NCBI RefSeq assembly: GCF_009739905.1
Contig: NZ_CP034279.1
Location: forward strand, 2,232,001-2,296,000
Direction: 5' to 3'
Origin: Streptomyces ficellus
GTDB taxonomy: Bacteria > Actinomycetota > Actinomycetes > Streptomycetales > Streptomycetaceae
DNA: 64,000 bases
Shown: positions 1 through 38,422 of the stretch, piece by piece
Position numbering within the stretch: the first letter of the stretch is position 1
Layout of the letters: every line of letters begins with the position of its first letter
Made by a program: the position numbers and the translations under genes
Notes under the pieces: generated by a model
What the model saw: only the letters and a program-made list of their open reading frames with translations
What the model was told of the DNA's origin: nothing
The model's database searches: none

Positions 1-3000
1 TCGACGAGAACAGCACGAAGGCGCTCAGCCCGCGGTCCCGGGTCAGCTCGTCCAGGTGCGCGGCCACGTCGACCTTCGGCCGGAAGACGGTGGCGACGTC
101 GTCCGCGGTGAGCGACTCGACGGTGCCGTCCGCGACGACCCCGGCCGCGTGCACGACGGCGGTCGGCGGATGGGCGGCGAGCAGGGCCGCGACGCCCTCC
201 CGGTCGGTGAGGTCCACAGCGACAGCGGTGACGTCGGCCCCCAGCGCGGTCAGTTCAGTCACGAGTTCCGCGGCGCCGGGCGCGTCCGGGCCCCGGCGGC
301 CGGCCAGCACCAGGCGGCGGACCCCGTACGCGGTGACCAGGTGCCGGGCGACCAGGCGGCCCAGTGTCCCGGTGCCGCCGGTGATCAGCACGCTGTCGCC
401 CCAGTCCGGCGCCGCTGCGTCGGTCGTGCGGGCGCGGACCACGCGCCGTGCCAGCACGGCCTCCCCGCGCAGGGCGAGTTGCGGCTCGTCGAGGGTGACG
501 GCACCGGCGAGCAGGGGCGCGGACGGCGTTTCGGCGGGGTCGAGTTCCAGCAGCAGGAACCGGCCCGGGTGCTCCGTCTGGGCCGTCCGTACGAGGCCGT
601 AGGCGGCGGCGGCCGCCAGGGCGTCGGACCCGCCCTGCCCCTCCGGGAGACCGGGGGCGACCGTGTCACCGGGGGCGCCGGTTGTCGCGGCGTGACCGAG
701 GAACACCAGCTTCGATTCGCTGAACCGCGCGTCGGCGAGCCAGGCCTGGATCGTCCCGAGCGTGCCGACGGTCGCCTCCAGCGCACCGGTGGACGCCGGG
801 ACGGGGACGAAGACCACGGCGGGAGCCGGCCGGCCCTCGTCCATCGCCGTGCCCAGCCCGTAGAGGTCCGCGAAACGCGCCACCTCGGTCCCGAGCCCCT
901 CGGCCACGCCGAACAGGTCCTCGCCGACCACGGCCCAGCCACCGCCGTCCACCGGGACCGCTCCGCCGCTCGGGGCGACCTCCACCCACTCGGGGCGGTA
1001 CAGGTGCTCCGGTGTGCGCGTCGCGCTCCCGGCGGCTGGGGGCCGTACGAGGAGGGAGTCGACCGTCAGCACCGGCCGGCCGCCACCGTCGGTGGCGAGC
1101 ACGGCGAAGGTGTCCGTGCCGGTGGGGGTGACTCGTACCCGCAGGGCGGACGCCTTCCCGGCGTGCACGGTGACACCGTTCCAGGAGAACGGCAGCTTCG
1201 CCTCCGCCACCGGCCCGACCAGCGCGGCCGAGTGGACGGCCGCGTCGATCAGCGCGGGATGGAGGGTGAAGCCGGCCGTGTCGGGAGCGGTCTGCGGCTC
1301 GATCTCGGTGAACACCTCGTCGCCGCACCGCCAGGCGGCGCGGATGCCGCGGAACGCCGGCCCGTACTCGAGACCGGTCGCCGCCAGCTCCTCGTACAGT
1401 CCCGCCACGTCGACCGGCTCGCTCCCGGCGGGCGGCCACGACAGCAGCCGCCCGTCCTCGGCCGGCTCCCGCGGCTCGGCGCCCAGGGTGCCCGTGGCGT
1501 GCGTGGTCCACTCCTCCAGCGCGCCGCCGCGCCCGTGGACGGTGACGGCGCGCCGTCCGTCGTCCGCGGCCGCGCCCACCGACACCTGGAGCTGGACCTC
1601 CCCGTCCTCCGGCAGGAGGACCGGCGAGACGATCACCAGCTCCTCGAGCGTGCCACAACCCACCTCGTCCCCCGCCCGGACCAGGCACTCGACGAGCGCC
1701 GCGCCGGGCAACGGAACCACGCCGCCGACGCGGTGCTCGGCGAGCCAGGGGTGTTCACGGATCGAGAGCCGGGCGGTGAACACGTGCCCGCCCGAGCCGG
1801 CGAGCGCGACCGCCGCGCCGAGCAGGGCGTGTCCGGTGCTTTCCAGACCGGCCGAGTGCACGTCGCTCCGCTGGGAGCGGGACGCTTCGAGCCAGTAGCG
1901 TTGGCGTTGGAAGGGATAGGTGGGCAGGTCGACCCGGGTGGCGGCGGTCCCCTCGAACAACACCCCCCAGTCCACCGCGACACCCGACGTGAACAACCGC
2001 CCCAAGGCCGACAGGAACGCCTGCTCCTCCGACCGGTCCTTCCGCAACACCGGCACCGTCACCGCACCCGGCACCACACCCGCCGCCATCCCCGACAACA
2101 CACCATCAGGACCCAGCTCCAAAAACACCGACACCCCGGCATCGGCAAGCGCCCGCACCCCATCACCGAAACGCACCGCCTCCCGAACATGCCGCACCCA
2201 GTACTCCGGCGACGACACCAACCCAGGACCAGCCACACCACCCGTCACATTCGACACCAACGGCATACGCGGCTCGGAGAACGACAACCCCTCCACCACC
2301 GCACGGAACTCCGCCAACATCGGCTCCATCAACGGCGAATGAAACGCATGCGACACCCGCAACCGCGACGACTTCCGCCCCGGCAACGCAGCAACCACCC
2401 CCTCCACCGCACCCACATCACCCGCGACCACCACAGCCTCAGGACCATTGACCGCAGCGATCGACACCCCCTCACCCAACAGCGGCAACACCTCCGCCTC
2501 AGACACACCCAACGCCACCATCGCCCCACCCTCCGGCAGAGCCTCCATCAACCGCGCACGCGCCCCCACCAGCACACACGCATCCTCAAGCGACAACACC
2601 CCCGCCACATGCGCCGCAGCCACCTCACCAATCGAATGACCCGACACAAACTCCGGCACCACACCCAACGACTCCACCAACCGGAACAACGCCACCTCAA
2701 CCGCAAACAACGCCGGCTGAGCCCAACCCGTCCGACTCAACAACCCCGCATCCGACCCCCACACCACCTCACGCAAACCATCAAACCGCCCCACCACCTC
2801 ATCAAACACCCCCGCAAACACCGGGAAACGCCCATACAACTCCCGGCCCATACCCAAACGCTGAGCACCCTGACCCGAGAACAACACCCCCACCCGACCC
2901 ACACCATCAACCACACCACGCGCCGCCTCCACCACACCCTCAGCAGAAGCCAACACCACCGCCCGATGACCAAACACCGACCGACCCAACAACGACCAAC

Positions 3001-6000
3001 CCACATCCACCCGGCCCCGCGCACCCACCGGCGAACCCACCGAACCCAGGGCCACCAGCCGCGCATCCAGCGCCCCCGCCGACTTCCCCGACACCACCCA
3101 CGGCACCACACCCGGCACCGAACCGGGCACCGAACCGGGCACCGACTCCCCGCCACCAGACACCGACTCCGCAGCGCCAGGCACCGACTCCACCCCCGGC
3201 GCCGACTCCAAAATCACATGCGCGTTCGTCCCACTGATCCCGAACGACGACACCGCAGACCGACGCACACCCCCAACAGACCCCGGCCACGCGACGTTCT
3301 CCGTCACCAACTCCACCGCACCCGACGACCAGTCCACATGCGGCGACGGCGCATCCACATGCAACGTCCGAGGCACCACACCCGCACGCATCGCCATCAC
3401 CATCTTGATCACACCACCCACACCCGCAGCCGCCTGCGCATGCCCGATGTTCGACTTCAACGACCCCAACAACACCGGACGCCCACGATCACCACGCCCA
3501 TACGTCGCCAGCAACGCCTCCGCCTCAATCGGATCACCCAAAGACGTCCCCGTCCCATGAGCCTCCACCACATCCACATCCACCACCGACAACCCCGCAC
3601 CCGCCAACGCCTCACGGATCACCCGCTGCTGCGACGGACCATTCGGCGCCGTCAAACCATTCGACGCACCATCGGAGTTGACCGCGCTGCCGCGCACCAC
3701 GCCAAGGATCCGGCGCCCGTTGCGCACGGCGTCGGACAGCCGCTCCAGCAGGAGAACACCAGCACCCTCGGACCAGCCGACGCCGTTGGCGGCCGCCGCG
3801 AAGGCACGGCACCGGCCGTCCGGGGACAGGCCGCGCTGGCGGGAGAACTCGACGAAGGTCTCGGGTGACGCGAGGACGGTCACGCCGCCGGCCAGGGCGA
3901 GGTCGCACTCGCCCTGCCGCAGCGCCTGCGCCGCCAGGTGCAGGGCGACCAGCGACGACGAACACGCCGTGTCCACGGTCAGGGTCGGACCCTCGAAGCC
4001 GAAGGTGTAGGAGACGCGGCCGGAGGCGACACTGCCCGCGGTCCCCGTGCTCACGTATCCCTCCAGCTCCTCGGGCACCCCACCGAGCCGCGACACATAG
4101 TCGTGGTGCATCACGCCGGCGAACACGCCGGTGCGGCTGCCGCGCAGCGAGACCGGGTCGATGCCGGCCCGCTCGAACGCCTCCCACGACACCTCCAGCA
4201 GCAGCCGCTGCTGCGGGTCGGTGGCCAGTGCCTCCCTCGGGCTCATCCCGAAGAACTCCGCGTCGAAGTCACCGGGGCCGGTCAGGAAGCCGCCGTGGCG
4301 GGCGTAGGAGGTCCCGGGTGTGTCCGGGTCGTCGTCGAAGAGACGGCCGAGGTCCCAGCCGCGGTCGGTCGGGAACTCGCCGATCGCGTCGACACCTTCG
4401 TGGACCAGGTTCCACAGGTCGTCGGGGGACTCGATCCCGCCCGGGTAGCGGCAGCCCATGGCCACGATCGCGATCGCCTCGTCGTCGGCGGCCCGGGCGG
4501 GCCGTGCGGCGGGCGCGGTGGCCGGGAGGGCCGTGCCGGTCAATTCGTCGCGGATGTGTGCGGCGAGCGCGGCGACCGTCGGGTAGTCGAAGGCGACCGC
4601 CGCGGGAAGCCGCAGCCCGGTGGCGGCGGCGAGCCGGTGGCGCAGCTCGACCACGGTCAGCGAGTCGAAGCCGAGGTCCCCGAAGGACCGGTCGGCGTCC
4701 GCCGCGGTGAGCGCGGCCCTGCCGAGTACCGTCGCGACCTCCGTGGCGACGAGTTCCCGGACCGTCTCGGTCCGTGCCTGCTCGGGCAGGCCGAGGAGGC
4801 GCTGCGTCAGTGTCGTGTCGCCGCCGCTCGCGGTGCGGCGGGCGGGTGCGGGCGCCAGGCCGCGCAGTACGGCGGGCACCGGGCCGGTGGCCTGGGCGCG
4901 CAGTGCGGCGGTGTCGATGCGCGCCGCGACCACCGCGGCGCGGTCCCCGTGGAGCGCGGCGTCGAAGAGCGCGAGTCCCTCGTCCGTGGTCAGCGGGGTG
5001 ATCCCGGAACGCTTCAGCCGCTTGACGTCCGCCTCGGCGAGGGCGCCGGCCATGCCGCCGTGCTCAGCCCACAGCCCCCAGGCGATGGAGGTCGCGGGCA
5101 GTCCGATGGCGCGTCGGTGCTCGGCGAGGGCGTCGAGGAAGACGTTGGCCGCGGCGTAGTTGGCCTGGCCCGCCCCGCCGAGGGCGCCCGACACCGAGGA
5201 GAACACGACGAACGCGTCGAGGGGCGTGCCGTCGGTCAGTTCGTGCAGATTGACGGCGGCGTCCACCTTGGGGCGCATGACGGCGTCGATGCGGTCGGGG
5301 GTCAGGGCGGCGAGTACGCCGTCGTCGAGGACTCCCGCGCTGTGCACGACAGCGGTCAGCGGGTGTGCCGCGGGTATCCCGGCCAGGAGGGCGGCGACCG
5401 CGTCCCGGTCGCCGGTGTCGCACGCCGCCAGGGTGACGCGGGCGCCGAGGTCCTCCAGTTCGGAGACGAGACCGGCCGCGCCGGGGGCGTCGGAGCCCCG
5501 GCGGCCGGCCAGCAGCAGGTGCCGGGCGCCGTACGCGGTGACGAGGTGGCGGGTGATGACCCGGCCGAGCGCCCCGGTAGCCCCGGTGACGAGGACGGTT
5601 CCCTCGGGGTCGAGGTGGGTACGCCCGGTCTCCGCGCGCGGTGTGCGCGTCAGACGGGGTACGCGGACGGAGGTGTCGCGCAAGGCGAGCTGCGGCTCAC
5701 CGGTGGCGAGCGCGGCCGCCAGGAGCGGGCGTTCGGGTTCCGTGCCGGGTTCGCCGTCGACCAGGACGAAGCGGTCCGGGTGCTCGGTCTGCGCCGAGCG
5801 GACCAGGCCCCAGAGTGCGGCGTTGGGCGGGTCGCCCGCCTCTTCGCCGGAGGCGGCGGCCATGGCCCCGCGGGTGACGAACACCAGGCGGGACGCGGCG
5901 AACCGGTCGTCGGCCAGCCAGTGCCGCATCAGCGCCAGCGCACGGTGGGCGGCGGTACGGGCGGCCTCGGCGAGGGGACCGCCGAGGGGCGGGCACGGTA

Positions 6001-9000
6001 CCAGGACGGCGTCCGGTACGGGTCCGGCCGCGGCGAGCGCGTCGAGCCCGGCCGTGTCCGTGGCCTCGCCCCAGGTGGCGGGTGCGCCCCCGGTGCCGGC
6101 CGTCGGCGCGGACGTCCACTCGATCGCGTACAGGGGCGCGGTGGCCCCGGCACCGCCTGCCTGCGGGGTGGTGCCGGCGCGCAGGGTCAGCGACGTCACG
6201 GAGGCGACGGGCTGGCCGGCCGGGTCGGCGAGCCGGAGCGACACGGTGTCGCCGTCGCCGACCGGGGTGAGGGCGACCCGCAGGCGGGACGCGCCCGCGG
6301 CGGCGAGGCTGACCCCGGTCCAGGAGAACGGGAGGCGCAGTTCCGTCCCCGGCTCTCGGGTGTGGGTGGTGTGCAGGGCGGCGTCGAGGAGTGCCGGGTG
6401 GATGCCGTACTCGGACACGTCGGCCCCGTCGGGCAGGGCGACCTCGGCGAACACCTCGCCGTCCCGCCCGCGCCAGGCGGCCTTGAGGCCCTGGAACAGC
6501 GGACCGTAGCCGTACCCCTGGGCGTCGAGGCGTTCGTACAGTCCGGTCAGCTCGACGGGTTCGGCGCCCTGCGGGGGCCACTGGCCCGCCAGTGTGAACG
6601 TGTCGTCCGCGGGCTCCGGCCCGAGGACGCCCTCGGCGTGCCGGGTCCAGGTGTCGTCCTGGCCCTCCTCCTGCGCGAACACGCCGAACCGTCGGTGGCC
6701 GGAGTCGTCCGGCGCGTCGACCGTCAGCTGGATCCGTACGGCGCCGGTCTCGGCGAGCGTCAGCGGTGAGCTGAGGGTCAGCTCCGCCACGGTGGCGCAA
6801 CCGACCTCGTCGCCGGCCCGCACCGCCATCTCGACGAAGGCGGCTCCGGGCACGATCGCCCGGCCGCCGACAGTGTGCTCGGCCAGCCACGGGTGGGTCG
6901 CCCGGGACAGGCGGGAGGTGAACAGTACGCGTCCGTCGTCGGCCAGTTCGACGGCCGCCGCGAGCAGGGGGTGCCCGGCGGCGGACATGCCCGTCGCGCG
7001 CACATCGCCGGATCCGGTGCCGTGTGCTTCGAGCCAGTAGCGTTGGCGTTGGAAGGGATAGGTGGGCAGGTCGACCCGGGTGGCGGCGGTCCCCTCGAAC
7101 AACACCCCCCAGTCCACCGCGACACCCGACGTGAACAACCGCCCCAGCGCCGACAGGAACGCCTGCTCCTCCGACCGGTCCTTCCGCAACACCGGCACCG
7201 TCACCACACCCGGCACCACACCCGCCGCCATCCCCGACAACACACCATCAGGACCCAGCTCCAAAAACACCGACACCCCGGCATCGGCAAGCGCCCGCAC
7301 CCCATCACCGAAACGCACCGCCTCCCGAACATGCCGCACCCAGTACTCCGGCGACGACACCAACCCAGGACCAGCCACACCACCCGTCACATTCGACACC
7401 AACGGCATACGCGGCTCGGAGAACGACAACCCCTCCACCACCGCACGGAACTCCGCCAACATCGGCTCCATCAACGGCGAATGAAACGCATGCGACACCC
7501 GCAACCGCGACGACTTCCGCCCCGGCAACGCAGCAACCACCCCCTCCACCGCACCCACATCACCCGCGACCACCACAGCCTCAGGACCATTGACCGCAGC
7601 GATCGACACCCCCTCACCCAACAGCGGCAACACCTCCGCCTCAGACACACCCAACGCCACCATCGCCCCACCCTCCGGCAGAGCCTCCATCAACCGCGCA
7701 CGCGCCCCCACCAGCACACACGCATCCTCAAGCGACAACACCCCCGCCACATGCGCCGCAGCCACCTCACCAATCGAATGACCCGACACAAACTCCGGCA
7801 CCACACCCAACGACTCCACCAACCGGAACAACGCCACCTCAACCGCAAACAACGCCGGCTGAGCCCAACCCGTCCGACTCAACAACCCCGCATCCGACCC
7901 CCACACCACCTCACGCAAACCATCAAACCGCCCCACCACCTCATCAAACACCCCCGCAAACACCGGGAAACGCCCATACAACTCCCGGCCCATACCCAAA
8001 CGCTGAGCACCCTGACCCGAGAACAACACCCCCACCCGACCCACACCATCAACCACACCACGCGCCGCCTCCACCACACCCTCAGCAGAAGCCAACACCA
8101 CCGCCCGATGACCAAACACCGACCGACCCAACAACGACCAACCCACATCCACCCGGCCCCGCGCACCCACCGGCGAACCCACCGAACCCAGGGCCACCAG
8201 CCGCGCATCCAGCGCCCCCGCCGACTTCCCCGACACCACCCACGGCACCACACCCGGCACCGAACCGGGCACCGACTCCCCGCCACCAGACACCGACTCC
8301 GCAGCGCCAGGCACCGACTCCACCCCCGGCGCCGACTCCAAAATCACATGCGCGTTCGTCCCACTGATCCCGAACGACGACACCGCAGACCGACGCACAC
8401 CCCCAACAGACCCCGGCCACGCGACGTTCTCCGTCACCAACTCCACCGCACCCGACGACCAGTCCACATGCGGCGACGGCGCATCCACATGCAACGTCCG
8501 AGGCACCACACCCGCACGCATCGCCATCACCATCTTGATCACACCACCCACACCCGCAGCCGCCTGCGCATGCCCGATGTTCGACTTCAACGACCCCAAC
8601 AACACCGGACGCCCACGATCACCACGCCCATACGTCGCCAGCAACGCCTCCGCCTCAATCGGATCACCCAAAGACGTCCCCGTCCCATGAGCCTCCACCA
8701 CATCCACATCCACCACCGACAACCCCGCACCCGCCAACGCCTCACGGATCACCCGCTGCTGCGACGGACCATTCGGCGCCGTCAAACCATTCGACGCACC
8801 GTCCTGGTTCAGGGCCGATCCCCGGACGATCGCGAGCACGGGGTGGTCGTTGCGGACCGCGTCCGAGAGCCGCTCCAGGAGGAGCATGCCGGCGCCTTCG
8901 GACCAGCCGGTGCCGTTGGCACCGGCGGCGAAGGCACGGCACCGGCCGTCGGGTGACAGCGCCCGCTGGCGGGAGAAGTCGAGGAACACCTGCGGCGAGG

Positions 9001-12000: not shown

Positions 12001-12685
12001 GCAGCGGCCACAGGACGTGGTCGTCACCCGAGAGGCCGAGCGTCGGCGCGTAGCAGGCAGCGACGGTCCACAGGGAGTTGCGCGTGGTGGACAGCACGCC
12101 CTTGGGGCGGCCGGTCGTCCCGGACGTGTACAGCATGAAGGCCGGGTCGTCGAGGCCGAGGTCGTCCCGGGCGGGCCGCGTGGGTTCGGTGGTGGCCAGG
12201 GTGGTGAACGAGACCGTGCCGGAGGGTGAGCCCGCGGGCAGGGTGTCGCCTGTGACGACGACGATCAGGCCGGGGTGGCGGGGCAGCAGCGCGCGGATGT
12301 CGTCGAGGCGGGCGGGGTCGGTGACGAGGAGGCGTACGCCGGCGTCGGTGAGGATGTGGTCGAGTTCGTCGCCGCTGGTGCGGGGGTTGACTGGAATGCC
12401 GATGCCGGAGGCCCTGGCGATCGCGTGGTAGCTCTCCACCATGTCGACGCCGTTGTCGAGGTGGATGGCGGCGCGGTCGCCGCGGTCCAGGCCGAGCGTG
12501 CGGAAGTGTCCGGCCAGCCACGCGGTGCGGCGTTCCAGCTCGGCGTAGTCCACGCTGCGCCGGGCGTCGGAGAAGGCGGTCTTGCCGCCGAGCCGCTCGG
12601 CTTGGTCCCGCAGCAGTTCGTGCAACGGCCGGATCAGATCGCTGCGCAGCACTTCAGCACTTCCCTCGGTGTCGTTCTCGGTCAT
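1..12685 (-). CDS. Starter modular type I PKS: AMP-ligase/KR-like/ACP loading module plus two KS-AT-DH-KR modules (C-terminal part outside window)
   Basis: First enzyme of the assembly line; it activates a carboxylic acid and starts chain growth. ATG at 12685 lies 31 bp after the chorismatase-DAHP synthase stop; at least 4,228 codons are visible. Approximate residues: AMP-ligase 1-520 with the [11 protein letters not shown] core near 190; KR-like region with TGARGTVG near 710; loading ACP near 963 reading GLTSL instead of GxDSL. Module 1: KS from about 1027 (DTACSSS near 1192), AT (GHSIGE, HAFH: malonyl type), DH (H-x3-G-x4-P near 1935), KR (TGATGALG near 2368, ANYAAAN), ACP near 2673. Module 2: KS, AT (GHSIGE, HAFH), DH with intact motif, KR (TGGTGTLG), and the window ends at the KR FSS serine motif. 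Both KRs carry a B-type LDD/VAD-like signature. The ligase-first layout resembles rapamycin/FK506 starter PKSs, but those carry an ER-like domain where this has a KR-like one (family knowledge). The substrate is inferred from the adjacent chorismatase. Confidence 0.95.
1884..3670. repeat. Copy B of a 1.78-kb near-identical intragenic repeat (KS C-terminal part + AT, module 2)
   Basis: This 1,787-bp stretch matches 7026-8800 almost base for base. By eye I find three substitutions (two adjacent to the AT C-terminal end near 2006-2012, one near 2061) and a 12-bp indel where this copy has an extra unit near 3115-3140, in the KS-AT linker. It covers the last third of the KS, the linker, the whole AT and the post-AT linker. 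The coding strand here uses many TTG, GGT, GTT and GCT codons, unlike the flanking C/G-ending codons. Both edges are sharp. Confidence 0.95.
7026..8800. repeat. Copy A of the 1.78-kb near-identical intragenic repeat (KS C-terminal part + AT, module 1)
   Basis: The 1,775-bp partner of 1884-3670, in the same orientation about 5.14 kb away within the same gene. Homologous recombination between the copies would delete or duplicate exactly one module in frame. Identity stops abruptly just after the shared [12 protein letters not shown]-coding region on the KS side and at the post-[11 protein letters not shown]-coding region on the other. Confidence 0.95.
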
Positions 12686-20655: not shown

Positions 20656-20982
20656 TCAAGCGGAACGCTTCTGCCCGATCAGCTCGTCCAACTGGAGCCG
20701 AGCGGAGCAGGACGGGCACTGGGCGACCGAACGCCCCCTCGCCGCCTGCCGGAAGTGCTCCAGCGAGTCCCCTTCGATGCACAGCGCGTCGGCCAGCAGG
20801 GCGATCGACCGCCGCTGCGGCGTGGTGGTGCGGCCCCGTTCCAGATCGGAAATCGTCCGAATGCTCAGACCGGAACTGAAGGACAGTTCTTCCTGCGTCA
20901 TCCCGGCCTGCTCACGAAGCAGACGCAACAGTGAGGCGAGCTCTTCCGCAGGACGATGATGCATGACAATGCGAGATATCAC
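20656..20982 (-). CDS. XRE-family helix-turn-helix regulator, embedded in the PKS cluster
   Basis: A 108-residue protein. GTG at 20982 is preceded by GGGGAG with a 6-nt spacer, which decides the start. An XRE/Cro HTH covers about residues 14-65 (LREQAGMTQEEL, FSSGLSIRTISDLERGR, SIALLADAL). The C-terminus has a CPSC pair (CPSCSARLQLDEL) that could bind metal or form a disulfide. It sits between two PKS genes on the same strand, 161 bp downstream of the PKS-NRPS stop and 206 bp upstream of the next PKS, and has its own leader. The position suggests a pathway-specific regulator, but nothing in the sequence shows whether it activates or represses, or which promoter it binds. Confidence 0.85.
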   Translation of the reverse strand: MISRIVMHHRPAEELASLLRLLREQAGMTQEELSFSSGLSIRTISDLERGRTTTPQRRSIALLADALCIEGDSLEHFRQAARGRSVAQCPSCSARLQLDELIGQKRSA

Positions 20983-21000
20983 GTAGTTCTCCCCGTGAGC

Positions 21001-21036
21001 CCCCCTCGGGGCCACTTGAACCAGCCACCGAGGGGG
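21001..21036. promoter_or_regulatory. Inverted repeat in the leader of the XRE regulator
   Basis: Perfect 9-bp arms CCCCCTCGG (21001-21009) and CCGAGGGGG (21028-21036) with an 18-nt loop, ending about 20 bp upstream of the regulator's GTG and about 6 bp from its ribosome binding site. It could be an autoregulatory operator or an mRNA hairpin. The same 160-bp gap must also end the PKS-NRPS transcript if that does not read through. Confidence 0.4.
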
Positions 21037-21143
21037 AACAACGTGATTTGTGTTGGCGAGATCGACCCTAACACGGCACCTCTGGATCTTGGTACCCGAT
21101 TCTTGGGCCCGAACTCGCCAAACCCGCATCCTTTACGGGGACT

Positions 21144-28966
<7,823 letters not shown>

Positions 28967-28970
<4 letters not shown>

Positions 28971-31900
28971 GCGTTCCCGAGCTGTTCGTCCAGCAGGTTG
29001 AAGAGTTCCTCCGGTGTGGCGGACTCCAGGGGGGCGGCGTGGTAACCGGGGGCTCCGGACCACGTGCGCGTCAGCTCCTTGAGCCGGGCCACGAGGTGTT
29101 CGCGCGCGGTGTCGTCCAGCGTGGTGGCCGACAGGGTCGCGCTCAGGTTGTCGAGGGCCTCGTGGACGGCACCCTCGGCGGCCGGGGCGCCGGGCGTGCC
29201 CGGCCCGTTCGCCGCCGCCTTCCCGTCCCGGAAGTGGGTGTCCAGGAATGTGGCGAGCGCCGCCGGGGTCGGGTAATCGAAGACCAGGGTGGCGGGGAGC
29301 CGGATGCCGGTCACCGTGCCGAGCTGGTTGCGCAGCTCGACCGCGGTGAGCGAGTCGAAGCCCAGTTCCTTGAACGGGCGGTCCTCGTCGACGGTTTCAC
29401 CGCCGGTCCCGTCGTGGCCGAGGACGGCGGCCACCTTGGCGCGGACCAGCGCCACGAGTTCGTCGAGCCGTTCGGCGGCCGGCAGGTCCGCGAGCCGGTC
29501 ACGCAGGGGGCCGTCGGTGTCCGCGCCGGTGCCGGATCCCTCGCCGCCCCGGCCGGGTGCGGCGGGCCGCACCCGCAGGAGCGAGCGCAGCACCGGCGGC
29601 ACACCGCTGGCCTGGGCCGCGGCGTGCAGCGCGGGGAGGTCGAGGCGGGCGGTGACGAGTTCGGGCGCGTCGTGGACGTGCGCGGCGTCGAGCGCAGCGT
29701 CGAGGAGCGCCAGGGCCTCCTCGGCCGGCATGGCGACGATGCCGGGGGCCGCGAGCCTCCGCATGCCGGCTTCGTCCAGGTCCCCGGTGATGTCGCTGCT
29801 CTCGTCCCACAGGCCCCACGCCAGCGACGTGGCGGGCAGGCCGAGCCGGTGGCGGTGCCGGGCGAGGGCGTCCAGGAAGGCGTTGGCCGCCGCGTAGTTG
29901 GCCTGGCCCGCGCGACCGAGCACGCCCGACAGCGAGGAGAACGTCACGAACGCCGTGAGGTCGTGTCCGAGGGTGAGTTCGTGCAGGTTGAGCGCCGCGT
30001 CCACCTTGGGGCGCAGGACGCGGTCGAGGCGCTCGGGGGTCAGTGAGGTGACGATGCCGTCGTCGACCACACCGGCCGTGTGGACGACCGAGGTGAGCCG
30101 CCGCTCAGGGGGCAGGGAGGCGAGCAGCGCGGCGAGCGCGTCGCGGTCCGCCACGTCGCAGCGGGCCACGGTGACGTGCGCGCCCAGGGCGGTGAGTTCC
30201 GCGACGAGGGCGTCGGCGCCGGGCGTGGCGGTGCCCCTGCGGCCCACGAGCAGCAGGTCGCGTACGCCCTTCTCCGCCACCAGGTGCCGGGCGACGAGGC
30301 CGCCGAGCACGCCGAGGCCGCCGGTGATCAGGGTGGTGCCCCGGCCGTCCGCCTCGGCGGGGGCGGGGGCATGTGCGGCCGGGACGCGTACGAGCCGGGG
30401 CACGAGGACGGTGCCGGCCCGGACGGCCGTCTCCGGTTCACCGGTCGCCACGGCCGCCGTCAGCGTCTCGGCGGCCACCGGGTCCGGTCCGGCCGCGTCC
30501 ACCAGGACGATCCGCCCCGGGTGTTCGGCCTGGGCGGAGCGCACCAGGCCCCACACCGCCGCGCCCGCGAGGTCCGTGGGGGTCGTGTCGCCGGCCGGCG
30601 CCACGGCGCCGTGGGTGACGACCACCAGCCGCGAGTCGGCCAGGAGGTCGTCCCGGAGCCACTCCTGGACGAGCCCGAGCACCCGGTCGGTGGTGTACCG
30701 GACCGCCGCGGCCGTGTCCGGCGACGTACCGTCGCCGCCCTGCCCGTCGTCGTCGGCGGCGGTGACGGGAGCCACCGGGGCGAACACGAGTTCCGGCGGC
30801 GGGGTCCCGGCCCCGGTCGCGGCGAGGAGCGCGGGGAGGTCGGCGTAGGGGTGGCCGGACGCGCGGGCCGGGTCACCGGCGCCGCCGATCACCGCGCACC
30901 GCTCGGGGCGGGTCACCGGGCCGGCCGGTGTGGCGGCCGTCCAGTCGAGCCGGAAGAGGGCGTCCCGGTGGGCGTCCGCGGTGGCCCGCAGCTGGTCGGC
31001 GGTGACGGGCCGTACGGTGAGCCCCTCGACGGACACGACCGGCGTGCCGGTGGTGTCGGCGGCCAGCAGCGTGAGCTCGTCGCCCTCATGGCGCAGGGCC
31101 ACCCGCAGGGCGGTGGGGCCGGTGCGGTGCACGGTGACGCCGCGCCACGCGAAGGGCAGCCGCAGGGGCGCGGGGCCGGGCTCCCGGTCGAGCCGGTCGG
31201 CGAGCACGGCGTGGAGGGCGGCGTCGAGCAGGGCGGGGTGCGGGCCGAAGGCCGCCGCGTCGGTGAGCGCGGCCGTCTCCGGGGCGACCTCGGCGAACAG
31301 CTCGTCGCCGCGCCTCCACAGGGCGCGCAGTCCGCGGAAGGCGGGGCCGTACGACAGCCCGAGGATGGCCAGCCGTCCGTACAGGGTGTCGACGTCCACC
31401 GGGATTGCCCCGGGCGGCGGCCAGACGCCGCGCAGCTGGTCCCAGGCGCCGCCTTCGGGGCGGGCGGTCTCCTCGGGCCGCAGGGTCCCCTGGGCGTGCC
31501 GGGTCCACGGCGAACCGGCGGGGCCGTCCTCGGGGCGGGAGTACAGGGTGAGCGCCCGGCGGCCGGAGTCGTCCGGGGAGCCGACGGCCACCTGGAGGGT
31601 GAGGGCGCCCTCGTCGGGCAGGACGACCGGTGCGTGCAGCATGAGCTCCTCGACGCTGCCGGGGCCCGTGCGGGCGGCCAGGTGGGCGGCGAGTTCGACG
31701 GTGGCGGTGCCGGGGAGCAGGAGTGTGCCGGCGACGGCGTGGTCGGCGAGCCAGGGGTGCATCCCGGCCGCGAGCCGCCCGGTGTGGACGGCCGCGCCGT
31801 CCACACCCGCGTCGTCCGCCAGGTCGACGGTGGCGCCCAGCAGCGGGTGGTCCACGGTGTGCAGCCCGGCGGCCCGGACGTCCCCGGCGGACGGGGCGGG

Positions 31901-34666
31901 GGCGTCGAGCCAGAACCTCCGCCGCTGGAAGGCGTAGGTGGGCAGAGGTACGTGACGTGCTCCGCCGCCCGCGAGGAGGGCGTGCCAGTCGACCGGGCCG
32001 CCACCCGCGTGCAGCAGGCCCAGCGAGGTGAGGAAGCGGTCCGGTCCGCCCTCGTCGCGCCGCAGGCTCGGGACGACGGTCGCCTCGGCGCCCGCCTCCT
32101 GGAGGAGTTCCTCCAGGCCGTAGGTCAGCACCGGGTGGGCGCCGCACTCGACGAAGGTGCGGTGCCCGTCCGCGAGGAGGGCGCGCACGGCGCCCGCGAA
32201 GTCCACGGGGCGGCGCAGGTTCTCGAACCAGTACTCGGCGGTCAGCGCGGCGCCGTCGAGGGGGCCGCCCGTGACGGTCGAGTAGAAGGGAACTCTCAGC
32301 TCGCCCGTCGGGAACGTGCCGATGGTGTCGAGGAGTTCGCGCCGTACGTCGTCGATGTGGGCGGAGTGGGAGGCGTAGTCGATGGGGATGCGGCGCGCGG
32401 GCGTCCCCTCGGCCTCGCAGACGGCCAGCAGTTCGTCCAGGGCGTCCAGGTCACCGGAGACCGCGGTGGCCGCCGGGCCGTTGACGGCCGCGACGGTGAG
32501 CCGTCCGTCCCAGCGCTCCAGCAGCTTCTCGACGTCGGCGACCGCGCGGGGCAGCGAGGCCATACCGCCGCGGCCCGTGATCGCGGCCCTGATGGGCCGG
32601 TTGCGCCGGGCGACGATCCGTACGGCGTCGGGCAGGGACAGCGCCCCGGCCACGCAGGCAGCGGCGATCTCGCCCTGGCTGTGGCCGACCACCGCGGTGG
32701 GCCGGACGCCGCAGGACTCCCACAGCGCCGCGAGGGAGACCATCATGGTGAACAGGGCGGGCTGGACGACCTCGTCCTCGTCCAGGGCGCGGGCTCCCGG
32801 CGTTCCGCGCAGCACGTCGACGAGCGACCAGTCGAGGTGGCGGTCGAACTCGTCGAGGCACTCGCGCACCCGGGCGGCGAAGACGGGGGACGTGTCCATC
32901 AGCCTCCTCCCCATGCCGGCCCACTGGGGGCCCTGGCCGGGGAAGACGAAGACGGCGCCGGACCGGCCGCCGGCCGCCGGTGCCACGCCCTGGACCAGCT
33001 GCGGTGCTGTCTCCCCCGCCGCGAGCGCCGTCAGCCCGGCGGTGAGCTGCCGCCGGTCGGCGCCGACGACGACGGCGCGGTGCTTCAGGGCGGAGCGGCC
33101 GGTGGCGAGGGTGAGGGCGATGTCGGCGTCCGCGAGGGCCGGTTCGGTCCCGAGGTGGTCGAGCAGCCGGGCGGCCTGGGCCCGCAGCGCGGGAGCGGAC
33201 CTGGCGGACAGCAGCCAGGGGACGGCGGGCAGGGGCGTGGCGACGGGCGCGGGGCGGTCGGCGGGGTCGACGTCGGTGCGGGTGCTCGGGGGCGCCTGTT
33301 CGATCAGCGCGTGAACGTTGGTTCCGCTGAGGCTGAACGAGGAGACCCCGGCGCGGCGCGGCGCCCCGGTATCGGGCCACGGCGTGTTTCGCCGAAGCAG
33401 TTCGACGCCGTCGGAGTCCCAGTCGACGTGCGGGGTCGGTTCGTCGATGCCGATGCTGGCCGGCAGGACACCGGCGCGGAGGGAGAGCACCGTCTTGATG
33501 ACGCCCGCGAGACCGGCCGCGGCCTGGGTGTGGCCGATGTTCGACTTCACCGAACCGACCAGCAGGGGCCGTCCGGCCCGGCGCTGAGCGCCGTAGGTGG
33601 CCAGCAGTGCCTGTCCCTCGATCGGGTCACCGAGGGTGGTTCCGGTGCCGTGGGCCTCGACGGCGTCGACCTGGTCGGGGGTGAGCCGGGCGTTTGCGAG
33701 GGCCTGGCGGATCACCTGCTCCTGGGCAGCGCCGCTGGGGGCGGTGAGGCCGTTGGAGGCGCCGTCCTGGTTGACCGCCGTCCCCCGGACAACCGCCAGC
33801 ACTTCGTGCCCGGCGCGCAGGGCGTCGGAGAGCCGTTCGAGGACGAGTACGCCGACACCCTCGGAGAAGGCGGTGCCGTCCGCGCCGGCGGCGAAGGGCT
33901 TGCACCGCCCGTCCGGGGCGAGACCTCCTTGGCGGCCGAACTCGACCAGCATCGCCGGGGTCGACACGACGGCCGCGCCGCCCACCAGGGCGGTGGTGCA
34001 CTCGCCGCCGCGCAGCGCCCTGCACGCGTCGTGCAGGGCGACCAGCGCCGACGAGCACGCGGTGTCAATGGTGACGGCGGGGCCTTGGAGGCCGAGGGTG
34101 TAGGCGATGCGGCCGGAGGCGAAGGCGGCTCCCGCCCCGTTGATGAAGTAGCCGTCCAGACCGGCGGAGCCGGAGGCGGTGAGGTGGGCGGCGTAGTCGC
34201 CGCTGATGATCCCCATATAGGCGCCGGTGCGGCTGCCGTGCAGGGAGTCGGCCGGGATTCCGGCCCGCTCCAGCGCCTCCCAGGCGGTCTCCAGCAGGAG
34301 CCGGTGCTGGGGGTCCATGGCCACCGCTTCGCGTGGCGAGATCCCGAAGAAGTCCGCGTCGAAGTCAGTGGCGTCGTCGAGGAAGGCGCCGAAGGTGCGC
34401 AGGGTGTCCGTGCCGTCCGGACCCTGCACCGTGAGTTCGTCGAGGTTCCAGTTGCGGTCGTCCGGGGTGCCGGACACCACGTTCCCGCCGGCGGTCAGCA
34501 GCCGCCAGAGGTCTTCGGGGGTCCGTATCCCGCCCGGGAAGCGGCAGGCCATCCCGACGATCGCGACGGGTTCACCGCTCTCGACGGCCTCCAGACGCTC
34601 GCGGGTCTCCAGCAGCTCCGCGGTGACTCGCTTGAGATAGCCGCGGAGTTTGTCCTCTGTGCTCAC
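28967..34666 (-). CDS. Type I PKS, single module KS-AT-DH-KR-ACP (methylmalonyl-type AT)
   Basis: 1,899 residues from GTG 34666, chosen because it follows GGGGGACGAGG and begins a class 1 docking helix ([20 protein letters not shown]); the frame is open further upstream but without PKS-like sequence. KS with DTACSSA near 202; AT with [10 protein letters not shown] near 664 and YASH near 766, the methylmalonyl-CoA signature; DH with [11 protein letters not shown] near 980 and DAALH; KR with TGGLGVLGG near 1449, ANYAAAN near 1589, B-type VDD signature; ACP GFDSL near 1772; C-terminal docking sequence [15 protein letters not shown]. All domains look active, so the module should install an alpha-methyl alkene. 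It is the first gene of the leftward operon, followed by the PKS-NRPS with a 4-base overlap. Confidence 0.95.
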
Positions 34667-34993
34667 CAAAACCTCGTCCCCCGTGGTGACCGCATGGCAA
34701 GGAATCCTTGTCCATAAGCCTCCACGCCGGGGAAGTGCCGGAACAGGCAGAACCGGCGGCGAAACCACAGAAATCCGGAACAGTGAATTCCATTTGTGTT
34801 CCGTCAGCCCGTCGCCACCACTTCGGGACCACCGATCCGGATGCCACTTGAGTTATCTTGACAGCCAGGGCTAGCCTGCCCGTCGGGGGAAATTCGCGTA
34901 TCGCTCTGTGCGCACCTCCGCCCTGCTTCCCGTCCTTTCCCGCCGACGCGGAACACACACCCGGAAATTGCACTGACCCGACGGAGGTCGACC
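34667..34993. promoter_or_regulatory. Divergent promoter region between the PKS operon and the Rieske oxygenase gene
   Basis: 327 bp without a gene, noticeably richer in A/T than its surroundings. For the rightward gene, TTGAGT (34848-34853) and TAGCCT (34872-34877) are 18 bp apart and form a plausible vegetative promoter with a leader of about 110 nt. Next to the PKS start lies a small palindrome CAAGGA-A-TCCTTG (34698-34710). CCGGAACAG occurs twice in direct orientation (34738-34746 and 34775-34783). No clear -10/-35 pair was found for the PKS direction. Confidence 0.4.
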
Positions 34994-36187
34994 GTGGTAT
35001 TCCAGCCCACTCGAGGAAACCTGCCCGCCCGCTTCGGCCCCGGCGTCCCCGGCGTTCCGGCCATCGGCCCCACGACTCTCGACGCCGAGGTCTACCGCGA
35101 CCCCGAGCGCTACGAGCAGGAGCGGATCAAGGTCCTCAATCGCAGCTGGCAGATCATCTGCCGGTCCGAGCAGGTGGCCGAGCCGGGCGACCACCACGTC
35201 TGGGAGGGCCACGGCGAGAGCATCGTCATCACCCGGCGCGAGGACGGGGGCCTCGACGGCTTCCACAACGTCTGCGCGCACCGGGGTGCCCGGATCGTCG
35301 CCGAGAGCGGCACCAAAGCCCGCCGCTTCACCTGCAAGTGGCACAACTGGGCGTACGACACCGAGGGCAGGGTCACCGGCGTCCCGGACCGGCCCGACTT
35401 CGACGCCACCATGCTGGCGGGCCTCTGCTCCCCGGCCGTCGACGTCGACGAGTGGGGCGGCTGGGTGTGGGCGGTCCTGGCCGGCCCCGGGGTGGCCGGC
35501 CCGCTGAAGGACTGGATAGCCCCCGAGGTGCGGGACGACCTGGCGGCCTTCCGCATGGAGGACATGAAGCTCGTCGAGAAGGTCGAGTGGGAGGTCGACG
35601 TCAACTGGAAGGTCGCCATCGACGCCTTCAGCGAGTACTACCACGCACAGGCGCTGCACGGCATGGGCGGCAAGGAGGCCAAGGACGCCCGCCACTCGAC
35701 GATGCACGTGCACGGCCGCAACGGCATGTACTTCGTCCCCTTCCTCGGCGTGCTGGAGGACCTCCTGCGGACCCTGGACCACACGCGCTACGCGATCTGC
35801 AACTACCAGCTCTTCCCCACCGCCGTGGCCAACTGCCAGGCCCTGCACACCCAGGTCTTCCGGGCCGTGCCGCTGGGCGTCACCAAGACCCGGTTCGAGG
35901 CGTGGGAACTGCGCTACGAGACGGACGAGAACGACGACCCCGAGTACCTGCGGCAGGTCGACTTCTTCTGGGAGATCTACAAGGCGGTCGTCCAGCAGGA
36001 CATCGACGAGTGGACCGACGTCGCCGCCACCACGCACTCCTCCGCGTACCGGACGAACATCCTCAGCAAGCGGGAGTGCATCATCGCGCACTTCCACCGC
36101 GTCATCGAGGACATGCTCGCCGGCGGCGACGGCCTCGGCCTGGAGCCCGCTCCGGCCGAGGACGGGGCGGACGCGCCCACCGGCTGA
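34994..36187 (+). CDS. Rieske-type aromatic-ring oxygenase, alpha subunit
   Basis: A 397-residue Rieske non-heme iron oxygenase. GTG 34994 follows CGGAGG with a 6-nt spacer. The Rieske [2Fe-2S] ligands are C94-x-H96 and C114-x2-H117 (NVCAHRGA, CKWHNW). The catalytic domain has the NWK...EYYHAQALH signature with H217 and H222 as expected mononuclear iron ligands. Family members hydroxylate or dihydroxylate aromatic or other substrates, taking electrons from a reductase and often a ferredoxin. Neither partner is encoded in the window. It is divergent from the PKS operon and convergent with the thioesterase gene, so it is probably a tailoring enzyme of the cluster, perhaps acting on the benzoate-derived end (inference). 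The substrate cannot be read from the sequence. Confidence 0.9.
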   Translation: MVFQPTRGNLPARFGPGVPGVPAIGPTTLDAEVYRDPERYEQERIKVLNRSWQIICRSEQVAEPGDHHVWEGHGESIVITRREDGGLDGFHNVCAHRGARIVAESGTKARRFTCKWHNWAYDTEGRVTGVPDRPDFDATMLAGLCSPAVDVDEWGGWVWAVLAGPGVAGPLKDWIAPEVRDDLAAFRMEDMKLVEKVEWEVDVNWKVAIDAFSEYYHAQALHGMGGKEAKDARHSTMHVHGRNGMYFVPFLGVLEDLLRTLDHTRYAICNYQLFPTAVANCQALHTQVFRAVPLGVTKTRFEAWELRYETDENDDPEYLRQVDFFWEIYKAVVQQDIDEWTDVAATTHSSAYRTNILSKRECIIAHFHRVIEDMLAGGDGLGLEPAPAEDGADAPTG

Positions 36188-36333: not shown

Positions 36334-36351
36334 TGTGGCGTGCGCGCCCGG

Positions 36352-37107
36352 CTACCGGCGCGGCAGCTCGCGGTCCACGACGCCGGCGACCTCGTCGATG
36401 TGCTCCGCCAGGTAGAAGTGCCCGCCGGTGAACGTCTCCAGGGTGAACGGCCCGGTCGTGTGCTCCGCCCACGCCCCCGCCTCCTCGGCGGTCAGGGTCT
36501 CGTCGTCCACACCCGCCAGGGCGACGACGGGGCAGTCCAGCTTCGGACGCGCCGGGTCGTACCGGTAGGTCTCAATGGCGGTGTAGTCGGCGCGCAGCGG
36601 CGGCAGGATCATGCGCAGCACGTCCCGGTCCTCCAGGATGCGCGCGTCCGTACCGCTCTGACTGCGCAGCACCTCCACCAGGCCCTGGTCGTCGAGCAGA
36701 TGGATACGGCTCTCCCGGTCCCTGGACGGCGCCCGCCGGCCGGACACGAAGAGCGTCGAAGGCGCCGTGCCGAGCCGCTCCCGCATCCTGTTCGTCACTT
36801 CGAAGGCGATGGCCGCGCCCATGCTGTGACCGAAGAAGGCGACGGGCTCTTTCAGCAGTGGTTCGAGCGCGGTGTACGCGGCGTCGGCGAATTCACTGAT
36901 CGTCGTCAGAAAAGGGTGGCTGATCCTGTCCTGCCGGCCGGGGTACTGCACGGCGAGAACCCGGGCCCTGTTTTTCAGGGACTGGGAAAGCGGACGGAAA
37001 TAACTCGCCGATCCGCCGGCGTGCGGAAAACACACCAGCGGCGTCGCACCCGTGGGCGCGGGCACGAATTGACGAATCCAGACGTCGTCCAGCACGATCT
37101 CGCTCAT
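36352..37107 (-). CDS. Type II (editing) thioesterase
   Basis: A 251-residue alpha/beta-hydrolase of the external thioesterase family that removes aberrant acyl groups from PKS/NRPS carrier proteins. The nucleophile elbow is GHSMGA with S95. An acidic residue in AGVDDETL and a histidine in FTGGHFYL complete the expected triad. The N-terminal LVCFPHAGGSASYF stretch is typical of the family. ATG at 37107 has only a weak ribosome site (AAGGAA 13 nt upstream). The desulfurase-like gene ends 55 bp upstream on the same strand, so the two are probably co-transcribed. Since no chain-releasing TE domain is visible in the cluster, it could also take part in release, although that is not the usual role of this family. 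Confidence 0.93.
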   Translation of the reverse strand: MSEIVLDDVWIRQFVPAPTGATPLVCFPHAGGSASYFRPLSQSLKNRARVLAVQYPGRQDRISHPFLTTISEFADAAYTALEPLLKEPVAFFGHSMGAAIAFEVTNRMRERLGTAPSTLFVSGRRAPSRDRESRIHLLDDQGLVEVLRSQSGTDARILEDRDVLRMILPPLRADYTAIETYRYDPARPKLDCPVVALAGVDDETLTAEEAGAWAEHTTGPFTLETFTGGHFYLAEHIDEVAGVVDRELPRR

Positions 37108-37162: not shown

Positions 37163-38422
37163 TCACAGGTGCCCGGCGAGCCGCCGGCCGGCGCCGGACT
37201 CGAGCCCGGGCAGCGCGGCGAGCCCTTCCAGCAGCCGGTCGACGTCCTCCTCGGAGGTGTAGGGCGCCAGGCCCACCCGCACCCCGCCCTCCTCGTTCAG
37301 ACCGAGGCGCCGGGCGGCGTCCGCCGAGTAGAAGGTCCCGACCCCGGTGTCGACACCCCGGGCGGCCAGATGGCGGTGCACCTCGCGCGGGTCGTGGCCC
37401 GGGAAGGTGAGCAGCAGGGTGGGCGCCCGCAAGGCGGCCCGCGAGTGCACCGTGACGCCCCCGAGGGCGGCCAGGCCCCCTTCGAGCCGCACTCGGAGCC
37501 GGTCCTCGTGCTCCTCCACCGCCGTCAGCGCCGCCGTCAGACGGTCGGCCCGGGGGGCGTCGGCGGGCCGCAGACCGCTGAGCCCCGCCCAGAAGTCCAC
37601 CGTCGCACGGACGCCGGCGAGCACGCCGTAGGGCAGGATGCCGAGCTCGAACCGCTCGGGAACGGCGTCGGTCGAGGCGAGCAGCTTGTCGGGGCTGAGC
37701 GTCTCCAGCAGCGCCGTACGGGCCGCGAGGACCCCGAGGTGCGGTCCGAGGAACTTGTACGCGGAGCAGCTGAGGGAGTCCGCGCCGAGCGCGTCGAGGT
37801 CGACGCGGGCGTGCGCGCTCAGCTGGGCCGCGTCGACGTGCAGCAGGGCGCCCACGCCGTGGGCAAGCTCGGAGATCGCCCGGATGTCGGGGCGTGTGCC
37901 GATCAGGTTGGACGCGGCGGTGACCGCGACCAGACGGGTGCGCTCGGAGAGCACCTGGCGCAGGTGGTCGGGGGTGAGTTCGCCGGTCGCCGGATCGAAG
38001 TCGGCCCACCGGACGGTGACCCCGGCGGCCTGGGCGGCCTGCTCCCAGGGCCGGATGTTGGCCTCGTGGTCGAGGCGGCTGACGACCACCTCGTCGCCCG
38101 GCCGCCAGGTCTTGGCCAGCGTGCGGGAGAAGTCGTAGAGGAGCTGGGTGGAGCTGCGCCCGAAGACGATGCCGCCCGGGTCGGCGCCGAGGAAGTCCCC
38201 GAGCGCCCGGCGCGCCGACACGACGATCGCCTCCGCGTTGCGCTCGCCCGCGGTACTGCTCCCCCGGTTGCACAGCGGGTCGGAGAGGGCGTCCACCATC
38301 GCGTCGATCACGGGCTGCGGTATCTGGGTGCCGCCCGGGCCGTCGAAGTGCGCGGACCCGGCCTTGAGGGCGGGGAACTGCGCGCGGACGGCATCGATGT
38401 CATAGGGCTGAAGGTTCGTCAC
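37163..38422 (-). CDS. Class V aminotransferase, cysteine desulfurase-like, lacking the usual catalytic cysteine
   Basis: A 419-residue PLP enzyme. GTG 38422 follows GGAG with a 5-nt spacer. Fold type I signatures are present: HVDAAQ (D197), PLP lysine K223 in SCSAYKFLGPH, and the STAGERNAEA start typical of the desulfurase-like (TIGR01976-type) subfamily. Desulfurases need a cysteine in a C-terminal loop; the only cysteines here are C51 and C219, and the corresponding region reads GTFYSADAARRLG. Sulfur transfer is therefore doubtful; a lyase or aminotransferase reaction is equally possible. Followed 55 bp later by the thioesterase gene. Membership in the pathway rests on position only. Confidence 0.88.
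   Translation of the reverse strand: MTNLQPYDIDAVRAQFPALKAGSAHFDGPGGTQIPQPVIDAMVDALSDPLCNRGSSTAGERNAEAIVVSARRALGDFLGADPGGIVFGRSSTQLLYDFSRTLAKTWRPGDEVVVSRLDHEANIRPWEQAAQAAGVTVRWADFDPATGELTPDHLRQVLSERTRLVAVTAASNLIGTRPDIRAISELAHGVGALLHVDAAQLSAHARVDLDALGADSLSCSAYKFLGPHLGVLAARTALLETLSPDKLLASTDAVPERFELGILPYGVLAGVRATVDFWAGLSGLRPADAPRADRLTAALTAVEEHEDRLRVRLEGGLAALGGVTVHSRAALRAPTLLLTFPGHDPREVHRHLAARGVDTGVGTFYSADAARRLGLNEEGGVRVGLAPYTSEEDVDRLLEGLAALPGLESGAGRRLAGHL

What the first reader, a model, noticed from the sequence alone, without database searches (positions are those of the whole stretch)
1..38422. Candidate new pathway: benzoate-primed polyene joined to serine
All four complete or nearly complete reducing modules in the window carry AT, DH and KR but no ER (malonyl in three, methylmalonyl in one), which would give a conjugated polyene from a chorismate-derived starter. 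The PKS-NRPS adds an unreduced beta-keto unit and an amino acid whose A-domain code reads as serine. A beta-ketoacyl-serine thioester is the classic precursor of a tetramic acid. I know 3-hydroxybenzoate-primed polyenes (cuevaene type), but none ending in serine; novelty is inferred from memory only.
Basis: inference. Interest (0 to 1): 0.75.

Follow-up and report, generated by a model that had tools for sequence, protein, structure and literature searches.

The report
Aryl-polyene cluster with oxazolomycin-like ending
A Streptomyces gene cluster appears to build a sugar-decorated polyene that starts from 3-hydroxybenzoate and ends in serine; its last enzyme resembles those that make the reactive spiro-beta-lactone of oxazolomycin antibiotics rather than those that make tetramic acids, a combination I found described nowhere.

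Summary
The window carries a 3-hydroxybenzoate-primed modular PKS and a PKS-NRPS with a serine A domain. Reading left of position 1 completes the cluster: one more reducing module, a glycosyltransferase and genes for a 3-amino-trideoxyhexose. Docking ends give one full order (g48>g47>g53>g50>g52). The predicted chain is aryl-pentaene-CO-CH(CH3)-CO-serine.

The tetramic-acid reading is weakened. The last AT is methylmalonyl-type, so the alpha carbon is substituted, and no Dieckmann cyclase is present. Instead, the first C domain and the MT-PCP-C part of an orthologous cluster (genome G284) independently pick the same relatives: ~2,000-residue C-A-MT-PCP-C NRPSs, one in a lajollamycin/oxazolomycin-type gene order. 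All share a terminal C domain that lost the HHxxxDG histidines; these terminal domains form one clade (99/97, with a long-branch caution).

I therefore favour an oxazolomycin-type cyclative release to a spiro-beta-lactone/gamma-lactam on a glycosylated 3-hydroxyphenyl pentaene. The chemistry is inferred, not shown. Side findings: a chorismatase-DAHP synthase fusion, a 1.8-kb gene conversion that overwrote an AT, and an ortholog with a methyltransferase in its A domain. New variant of a known kind.

The parts
1..12685 (-). g48 (continues to -925, 4536 aa): loading CoA ligase (12685-11117) - inactive KR remnant - ACP (9886-9683); module 1 KS-AT(malonyl)-DH-KR-ACP; module 2 KS-AT(malonyl)-DH-KR-ACP
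12717..14915 (-). g49 fusion: chorismatase of the Hyg5 (3-hydroxybenzoate) type (aa 24-332) + short class II DAHP synthase (aa 350-724)
14987..20449 (-). g50 PKS, module 5 by docking order: KS-AT(malonyl)-DH-KR-ACP
20656..21129 (-). g51 small XRE-type HTH regulator, conserved in the orthologous cluster
21144..29063 (-). g52 PKS-NRPS, terminal: docking-KS-AT(methylmalonyl-type, 27257-26298)-ACP-C-A(serine)-PCP-C*
24447..25784 (-). g52 first C domain (HHIIADAWS, intact); closest non-orthologous relatives are oxazolomycin-type NRPSs
22857..24365 (-). g52 A domain, code D-V-W-H-I-S-L-V-D; 57% identical (254 of 443) to the A domain of the oxazolomycin-type NRPS of G191. The ortholog in G284 carries a methyltransferase inserted here
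21153..22496 (-). g52 terminal C* domain: HHxxxDG replaced by TLLAQDG; shares derived residues (His2218, Tyr2539) with oxazolomycin-type terminal C domains; proposed cyclising release domain
28967..34768 (-). g53 PKS, module 4 by docking order: KS-AT(methylmalonyl)-DH-KR-ACP
34994..36187 (+). g54 Rieske non-haem oxygenase alpha subunit
36352..37107 (-). g55 stand-alone (type II-like) thioesterase
37163..38422 (-). g56 PLP enzyme of the VC1184 'cysteine desulfurase-like' family, without the desulfurase cysteine loop; last gene conserved with G284, right edge of the cluster
1884..3670 (-). g48 module 2 KS(C-terminal part)-AT tract, nearly identical in DNA to 7026-8800 of module 1 (recent gene conversion)
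7026..8800 (-). g48 module 1 KS(C-terminal part)-AT tract, probable donor of the conversion

Best explanation
A complete biosynthetic gene cluster (about -14,100 to 38,400 in window coordinates) for a glycosylated 3-hydroxyphenyl polyene with a serine-derived end. The chorismatase-DAHP synthase fusion supplies chorismate and turns it into 3-hydroxybenzoate. The CoA ligase-ACP loading module activates it. Modules in the order g48 m1, g48 m2, g47, g53, g50 add malonyl, malonyl, methylmalonyl, methylmalonyl, malonyl, each ketoreduced and dehydrated, giving an aryl-conjugated pentaene. The last PKS module (in g52) adds an unreduced methylmalonyl unit, and the NRPS module adds serine. This gives an alpha-methyl-beta-ketoacyl-seryl-S-PCP. 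The histidine-less terminal C domain then releases it as in the oxazolomycin/lajollamycin pathways: the serine alpha carbon closes on the beta-ketone (gamma-lactam) and the serine hydroxyl closes on the thioester (spiro-beta-lactone). A 3-amino-2,3,6-trideoxyhexose is attached by the EryCIII-like glycosyltransferase. Shown by sequence: gene content, domain order, active-site motifs, kinship of the NRPS module. Inferred: module order, extender units, serine, all chemistry of release, the site of glycosylation, and the roles of the Rieske and PLP enzymes.
For: Starter: CH-II residues present (PMC7170507); loading CoA ligase-ACP with a dead KR. Chain: DH/KR motifs intact, no ER; docking-end types allow a single path through all five PKS proteins. 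Last extender: methylmalonyl-type AT. Serine code, shared with G191's NRPS. NRPS kinship: the first C domain's five best non-orthologous hits in 295 Streptomyces genomes are G175, G191, G088, G138 and G101 (408-360 bits, next 350); the methyltransferase-PCP-C part of the orthologous gene has G191, G088, G138 and G175 as its top four. G088's NRPS is followed by two discrete ATs, an acyl-CoA dehydrogenase and an FkbH-sized HAD protein in the order and sizes of Laj10-Laj16 (table in PMC10831120). In G191 the PKS before the NRPS is KS-methyltransferase-ACP without KR, i.e. also an alpha-methyl-beta-keto unit. Terminal C domains of all lack HHxxxDG, form one clade 99/97 and share derived residues such as His2218 and Tyr2539. 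Lajollamycin's serine/threonine is attributed to Laj10, which is also proposed to release the product. The G284 ortholog has the A-embedded methyltransferase of that NRPS type. Sugar genes.
Against: The terminal C domains of the two groups are far apart (about 24% identity) and the tree program warns that two long branches meet. The replaced histidine positions differ (TL versus SY/NY). The rest of the pathway is unlike oxazolomycin (cis-AT, no methoxymalonyl genes, no glycine/oxazole start). The window protein lacks the methyltransferase. The enzyme that forms the spiro-beta-lactone in oxazolomycin is, to my knowledge, not established. AT and A-domain predictions rest on motifs. The first C domain clade is only 86/84.
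Confidence: 0.52

Rival explanations
1. Tetramic acid: the beta-ketoacyl-seryl thioester is closed by Dieckmann condensation, with the terminal C domain or the stand-alone thioesterase as cyclase.
For: Beta-ketoacyl-aminoacyl-S-PCP is the general tetramate precursor (PMC4979870). Serine-derived tetramates exist in fungi (equisetin; from memory).
Against: Methylmalonyl-type AT in the last module places a methyl on the nucleophilic carbon. No PyrD3/D4, Dieckmann cyclase, R* or integrated TE was recognised in the cluster. NRPS kinship is with the spiro-beta-lactone type.
Confidence: 0.13
2. Oxazolomycin-like first step only: the serine alpha carbon closes on the ketone to a hydroxymethyl-gamma-lactam (or pyrrolinone) and the acid is freed by water, so no beta-lactone is made.
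For: Same kinship evidence; a stand-alone thioesterase is present in both clusters.
Against: The known relatives of the NRPS type are reported with a spiro-beta-lactone (PMC10831120).
Confidence: 0.15
3. Simple release: the thioesterase or water frees an N-acylserine, or the phenol/serine hydroxyl makes a macrolactone; the terminal C domain is a vestige or a docking platform (like X domains).
For: The terminal C domain has no catalytic histidines; a type II-like thioesterase is present.
Against: The terminal domain is kept at 77% identity in two diverged clusters, as is a counterpart in oxazolomycin-type NRPSs; an all-E pentaene disfavours macrocycle closure.
Confidence: 0.15

Closest known systems
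Lajollamycin/oxazolomycin pathway terminus (Laj10/OzmL NRPS)
   Same: C-A(Ser)-PCP-C layout, stand-alone relatives of about 2,000 aa; first C domain closest of those sampled and A domain 57% identical to G191's; terminal C without HH; preceding module gives an alpha-methyl-beta-keto unit
   Different: Window: cis-AT PKS, methylmalonyl AT instead of C-methyltransferase, PKS and NRPS fused in one protein, no A-embedded methyltransferase (G284 has it), aryl start, aminosugar; no methoxymalonyl genes or oxazole start
Cuevaene-type 3-hydroxybenzoate-primed polyketides
   Same: 3-hydroxybenzoate start from a chorismatase, conjugated chain
   Different: Cuevaenes end as free acids or amides and have a tricyclic core and an enol methyl ether; the window has an NRPS serine end and sugar genes
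3-Hydroxybenzoate-primed heptaene macrolide clusters of Lentzea and Saccharopolyspora
   Same: Lentzea loading protein about 52% identical; chorismatase and DAHP synthase side by side (PMC8944477)
   Different: There the two enzymes are separate genes and the Lentzea PKS is predicted to have 24 modules and make a macrolactone
Salinosporamide (SalC) gamma-lactam-beta-lactone
   Same: Aldol plus lactonisation of an alpha-substituted beta-ketoacyl-aminoacyl thioester (from general knowledge)
   Different: SalC is a stand-alone ketosynthase (PMC9582728); none is in this cluster

Membership tests
CH-II (Hyg5-type) chorismatase, 3-hydroxybenzoate synthase | Curated family score and CH-II Gly/Cys plus catalytic Glu (Hyg5 G240, C327, E334) | tested here: met
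   TIGR04444 434 bits over cut-off 325; residues aligned; residue rule from PMC7170507
3-Hydroxybenzoate-primed modular PKS | CoA ligase-ACP loading module next to a chorismatase | tested here: met
   homologous loading proteins in Lentzea
Oxazolomycin-type terminal NRPS module | C-A(Ser/Thr)-PCP-C with terminal C lacking HHxxxDG, same clade | tested here: met
   long-branch caution
Oxazolomycin-type terminal NRPS module | A-embedded N-methyltransferase | tested here: not met
   absent in the window, present in the G284 ortholog
Oxazolomycin/lajollamycin compound family | Trans-AT PKS, methoxymalonyl-ACP genes, formylglycine/oxazole start or equivalent | tested here: not met
   cis-AT modules and no such genes in the cluster
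Oxazolomycin/lajollamycin compound family | Spiro-beta-lactone-gamma-lactam in the product | not testable with these tools
   no metabolite data
Tetramic acid PKS-NRPS | Dieckmann-closing unit (TE, R*, PyrD3/D4, Dieckmann cyclase) | tested here: not met
   none recognised among the annotated genes; a stand-alone thioesterase remains possible
Tetramic acid PKS-NRPS | Unsubstituted alpha carbon from malonyl in the last PKS module | tested here: not met
   GHSQG/YGSH, methylmalonyl-type AT; motif- and similarity-based
Cysteine desulfurase (g56) | Catalytic cysteine loop | tested here: not met
   the region reads GTFYSAD in the alignment, no cysteine there

The most novel reading that the evidence does not exclude
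The cluster makes an aryl-primed, glycosylated member of the spiro-beta-lactone/gamma-lactam class on a cis-AT assembly line, showing that a histidine-less terminal C domain is the portable cyclase that builds this warhead.
Probability: 0.35. Interest if true: 0.8.

Novelty: new variant of a known kind. Interest (0 to 1): 0.6.

Why it matters
How oxazolomycin-type assembly lines close the spiro-beta-lactone/gamma-lactam is, as far as I know, unresolved. A second, far-diverged lineage with the same NRPS ending narrows the candidates to the terminal C* domain and names residues to test (His2218, Tyr2539). It also predicts a new compound type: an aryl-polyene with a reactive lactone and an aminosugar. 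The pair of orthologous clusters contains two natural engineering events, an AT overwritten by its neighbour and an A domain with or without a methyltransferase.

Tried and rejected
(1) FK506/rapamycin kinship (chorismatase start, C-A-PCP-C end): rejected because the chorismatase has CH-II, not FkbO-type, residues and the A code is serine. (2) Tetramic acid: see rivals. (3) Salinosporamide-type closure by a SalC ketosynthase: no stand-alone KS in the cluster. (4) The luciferase-like gene at 39000-40178 as a tailoring gene: not in the G284 cluster, so left out. (5) ABC transporter genes at -18.1 to -15.1 kb as cluster members: absent from the G284 cluster. (6) g56 as a marker: the family is present in 113 of 295 Streptomyces genomes at E<=1e-60, so its presence says little about chemistry. 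(7) Plasmid collection searches gave only weak PKS/NRPS matches. (8) The first-hand oxazolomycin cluster paper is not held. (9) Literature searches for a described aryl-polyene with a serine lactone end found none, but most subscription journals are missing. (10) No structure prediction was run: the useful alignment rows come from genome-search loci, which the tool does not list as admissible.
Full report
Setting. The window is positions 2,232,001-2,296,000 of a 7.08-Mb single-contig genome. I took 60 kb to the left and 20 kb to the right, called genes by frame composition and annotated them. Window coordinates are used; negative numbers lie left of position 1.

Cluster. From left to right: rmlB (-14119..-13124, +); NDP-hexose 2,3-dehydratase (-13065..-11296); an NAD-dependent epimerase/ketoreductase-like gene (-11668..-10667); an RmlC-like epimerase (-10676..-10074); a DegT-type aminotransferase (-10047..-8836); rmlA (-8839..-7916); an EryCIII-like, activator-dependent glycosyltransferase (-7817..-6399); PKS g47 (-6510..-952); PKS g48 (-925..12685); chorismatase-DAHP synthase fusion g49; PKS g50; HTH gene g51; PKS-NRPS g52; PKS g53; Rieske oxygenase g54; thioesterase g55; PLP enzyme g56. 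The sugar set (RmlA, RmlB, 2,3-dehydratase, aminotransferase, epimerase, ketoreductase, no methyltransferase) is what 3-amino-2,3,6-trideoxyhexose pathways use; that assignment, and the naming of the RmlC-like gene (by eye), are from general knowledge.

An orthologous cluster defines the edges. A search of 392 Streptomyces genomes with the chorismatase half found one genome, G284, with a close relative. Its region carries the whole cluster in the same order, rmlB to g56, at 67-89% protein identity, with different flanks. The luciferase-like gene at 39000 and the ABC genes at -18 kb are not part of it. The terminal C domain occurs at E<=1e-60 in only 2 of 295 Streptomyces genomes, these two. 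So the cluster is rare, and its conservation indicates a selected unit.

Starter. g49 scores 434 bits against the Hyg5/FkbO chorismatase model. In the alignment with Hyg5 (5ag3) it has the Gly, Cys and Glu at Hyg5 positions 240, 327 and 334. A paper that measured such an enzyme gives Gly-231 and Cys-318 (with Gly-164) as marks of the 3-hydroxybenzoate-forming CH-II group, and Glu-334 of Hyg5 as the catalytic acid (PMC7170507). The second half is a short class II DAHP synthase, closest among solved structures to 6bmc. In the other Streptomyces and Lentzea loci that hold both genes, the two are adjacent but separate, in different frames. The in-frame fusion is seen only here and in G284 (there with a frameshift inside the chorismatase part).

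Chain. The loading module is CoA ligase, KR remnant without Ser/Tyr motifs, ACP. All five extension modules have DH His/Asp and KR Tyr-Asn motifs and no ER. AT motifs: g48 m1 and m2 HAFH, g50 HAFH, g47 and g53 YASH, g52 GHSQG/YGSH. Against solved structures the g52 AT scores 374-349 bits with branched-unit ATs of EryA and similar proteins, and well below that with malonyl-type ATs (which of these ATs are malonyl-specific is from memory). Docking ends fall into two types. g48 and g50 end in the [24 protein letters not shown] type; g47 and g53 end in the [26 protein letters not shown] type. g47 and g52 begin with the [14 protein letters not shown] type; g50 and g53 begin with the [16 protein letters not shown] type. 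With the first end type matched to the first start type and the second to the second (established pairing, from memory), the only path through all proteins is g48>g47>g53>g50>g52. Predicted linear product: 3-HO-C6H4-(CH=CH)2-CH=C(CH3)-CH=C(CH3)-CH=CH-CO-CH(CH3)-CO-Ser.

Serine. A-domain motifs [29 protein letters not shown] and [12 protein letters not shown] give D-V-W-H-I-S-L-V-D, a serine code (residues; code table from memory).

The end of the line. The terminal C domain carries TLLAQDG where HHxxxDG is expected, in both clusters. The G284 protein has a methyltransferase inserted in the A domain. Searching 295 Streptomyces genomes with that methyltransferase-PCP-C part gave G191, G088, G138 and G175 as the best non-orthologous hits, three of them in frames of about 2,015 aa. 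Searching the same genomes with the window's first C domain alone gave G175, G191, G088, G138 and G101 as the best hits before any other NRPS. Two non-overlapping queries therefore name the same NRPSs. In G088 the NRPS is followed by a 1146-aa AT protein, a 685-aa AT protein, a 383-aa acyl-CoA dehydrogenase and a 365-aa HAD/FkbH-like protein. This is the order and size of Laj10-Laj12, Laj15 and Laj16 of the lajollamycin cluster (table in PMC10831120), which resembles the oxazolomycin cluster. In G191 the preceding PKS is KS-methyltransferase-ACP, so these lines too appear to hand an alpha-methyl-beta-ketoacyl chain to the NRPS. Lajollamycins B and C are attributed to serine or threonine chosen by Laj10, and release is assigned to Laj10.

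Tree and residues. In a tree of 34 C domains the six terminal domains form one clade (99/97) apart from 28 others, and the first C domains of both NRPS types are sisters (86/84). The program warns of long branches for the terminal group. Independent of the tree, 23 columns are invariant in the six terminal domains and uncommon in canonical ones; at His2218 all 14 canonical domains have Gln, and at Tyr2539 most have Leu. These are candidate catalytic or structural residues; no structure was examined.

Interpretation. Alpha-methyl-beta-ketoacyl-seryl-S-PCP plus an oxazolomycin-type ending suggests aldol closure of the serine alpha carbon on the ketone and lactonisation by the serine hydroxyl. 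An ordinary tetramic acid is disfavoured by the alpha-methyl group and by the lack of the cyclases listed in PMC4979870. The release step is inference; my confidence in the full statement is about one half.

Evolution. Modules 1 and 2 of g48 share a tract of about 1.8 kb that is nearly identical in DNA (7026-8800 and 1884-3670: exact runs of 121, 1069 and 525 bases, one 12-base indel), while the flanks are mostly 55-80% identical. In G284 the two ATs are 70% identical and module 2 has an unusual VASH motif. Thus in the window module 1's KS-AT end has probably overwritten module 2's, a natural AT swap. The two clusters may differ in that extender unit and in N-methylation.

Limits. The original oxazolomycin cluster paper is not held. 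AT, A and docking assignments are motif rules.

Noticed in passing
12717-14915 (window); L090/L110 in G284; L017, L027, L095, L099, L103, L104: Chorismatase and class II DAHP synthase are fused in frame in the window and G284, but adjacent separate genes elsewhere; I found no description of such a fusion.
   Followed up: yes
7026-8800 and 1884-3670: Recent gene conversion between modules 1 and 2 of g48 covering the KS end and the AT; a natural AT swap.
   Followed up: yes
G284:C1:2625607-2626689 (within L113, L134): Ortholog of g52 has a methyltransferase inserted in its A domain between the A8 motif and the A-domain C-terminal end; the window protein lacks it.
   Followed up: yes
G284:C1:2616437-2617427 (L090, L110): The chorismatase part of the G284 fusion is split by a frameshift (sequence error or broken gene).
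   Followed up: no
G284 g48 ortholog, module 2 AT: AT of the malonyl-type clade with GHSLG and VASH instead of HAFH; extender unit unclear.
   Followed up: no
37163-38422: VC1184-family PLP enzyme without the desulfurase cysteine, conserved at the cluster edge; its relatives in the PDB include UstD and FGM3. Role here unknown.
   Followed up: partly
34994-36187: Rieske oxygenase alpha subunit alone, 82% identical in G284; no dedicated reductase or ferredoxin among the cluster genes called.
   Followed up: partly
L129 (G671): A C domain with a half-lost motif (PHLVMDG) that branches next to the terminal clade.
   Followed up: no
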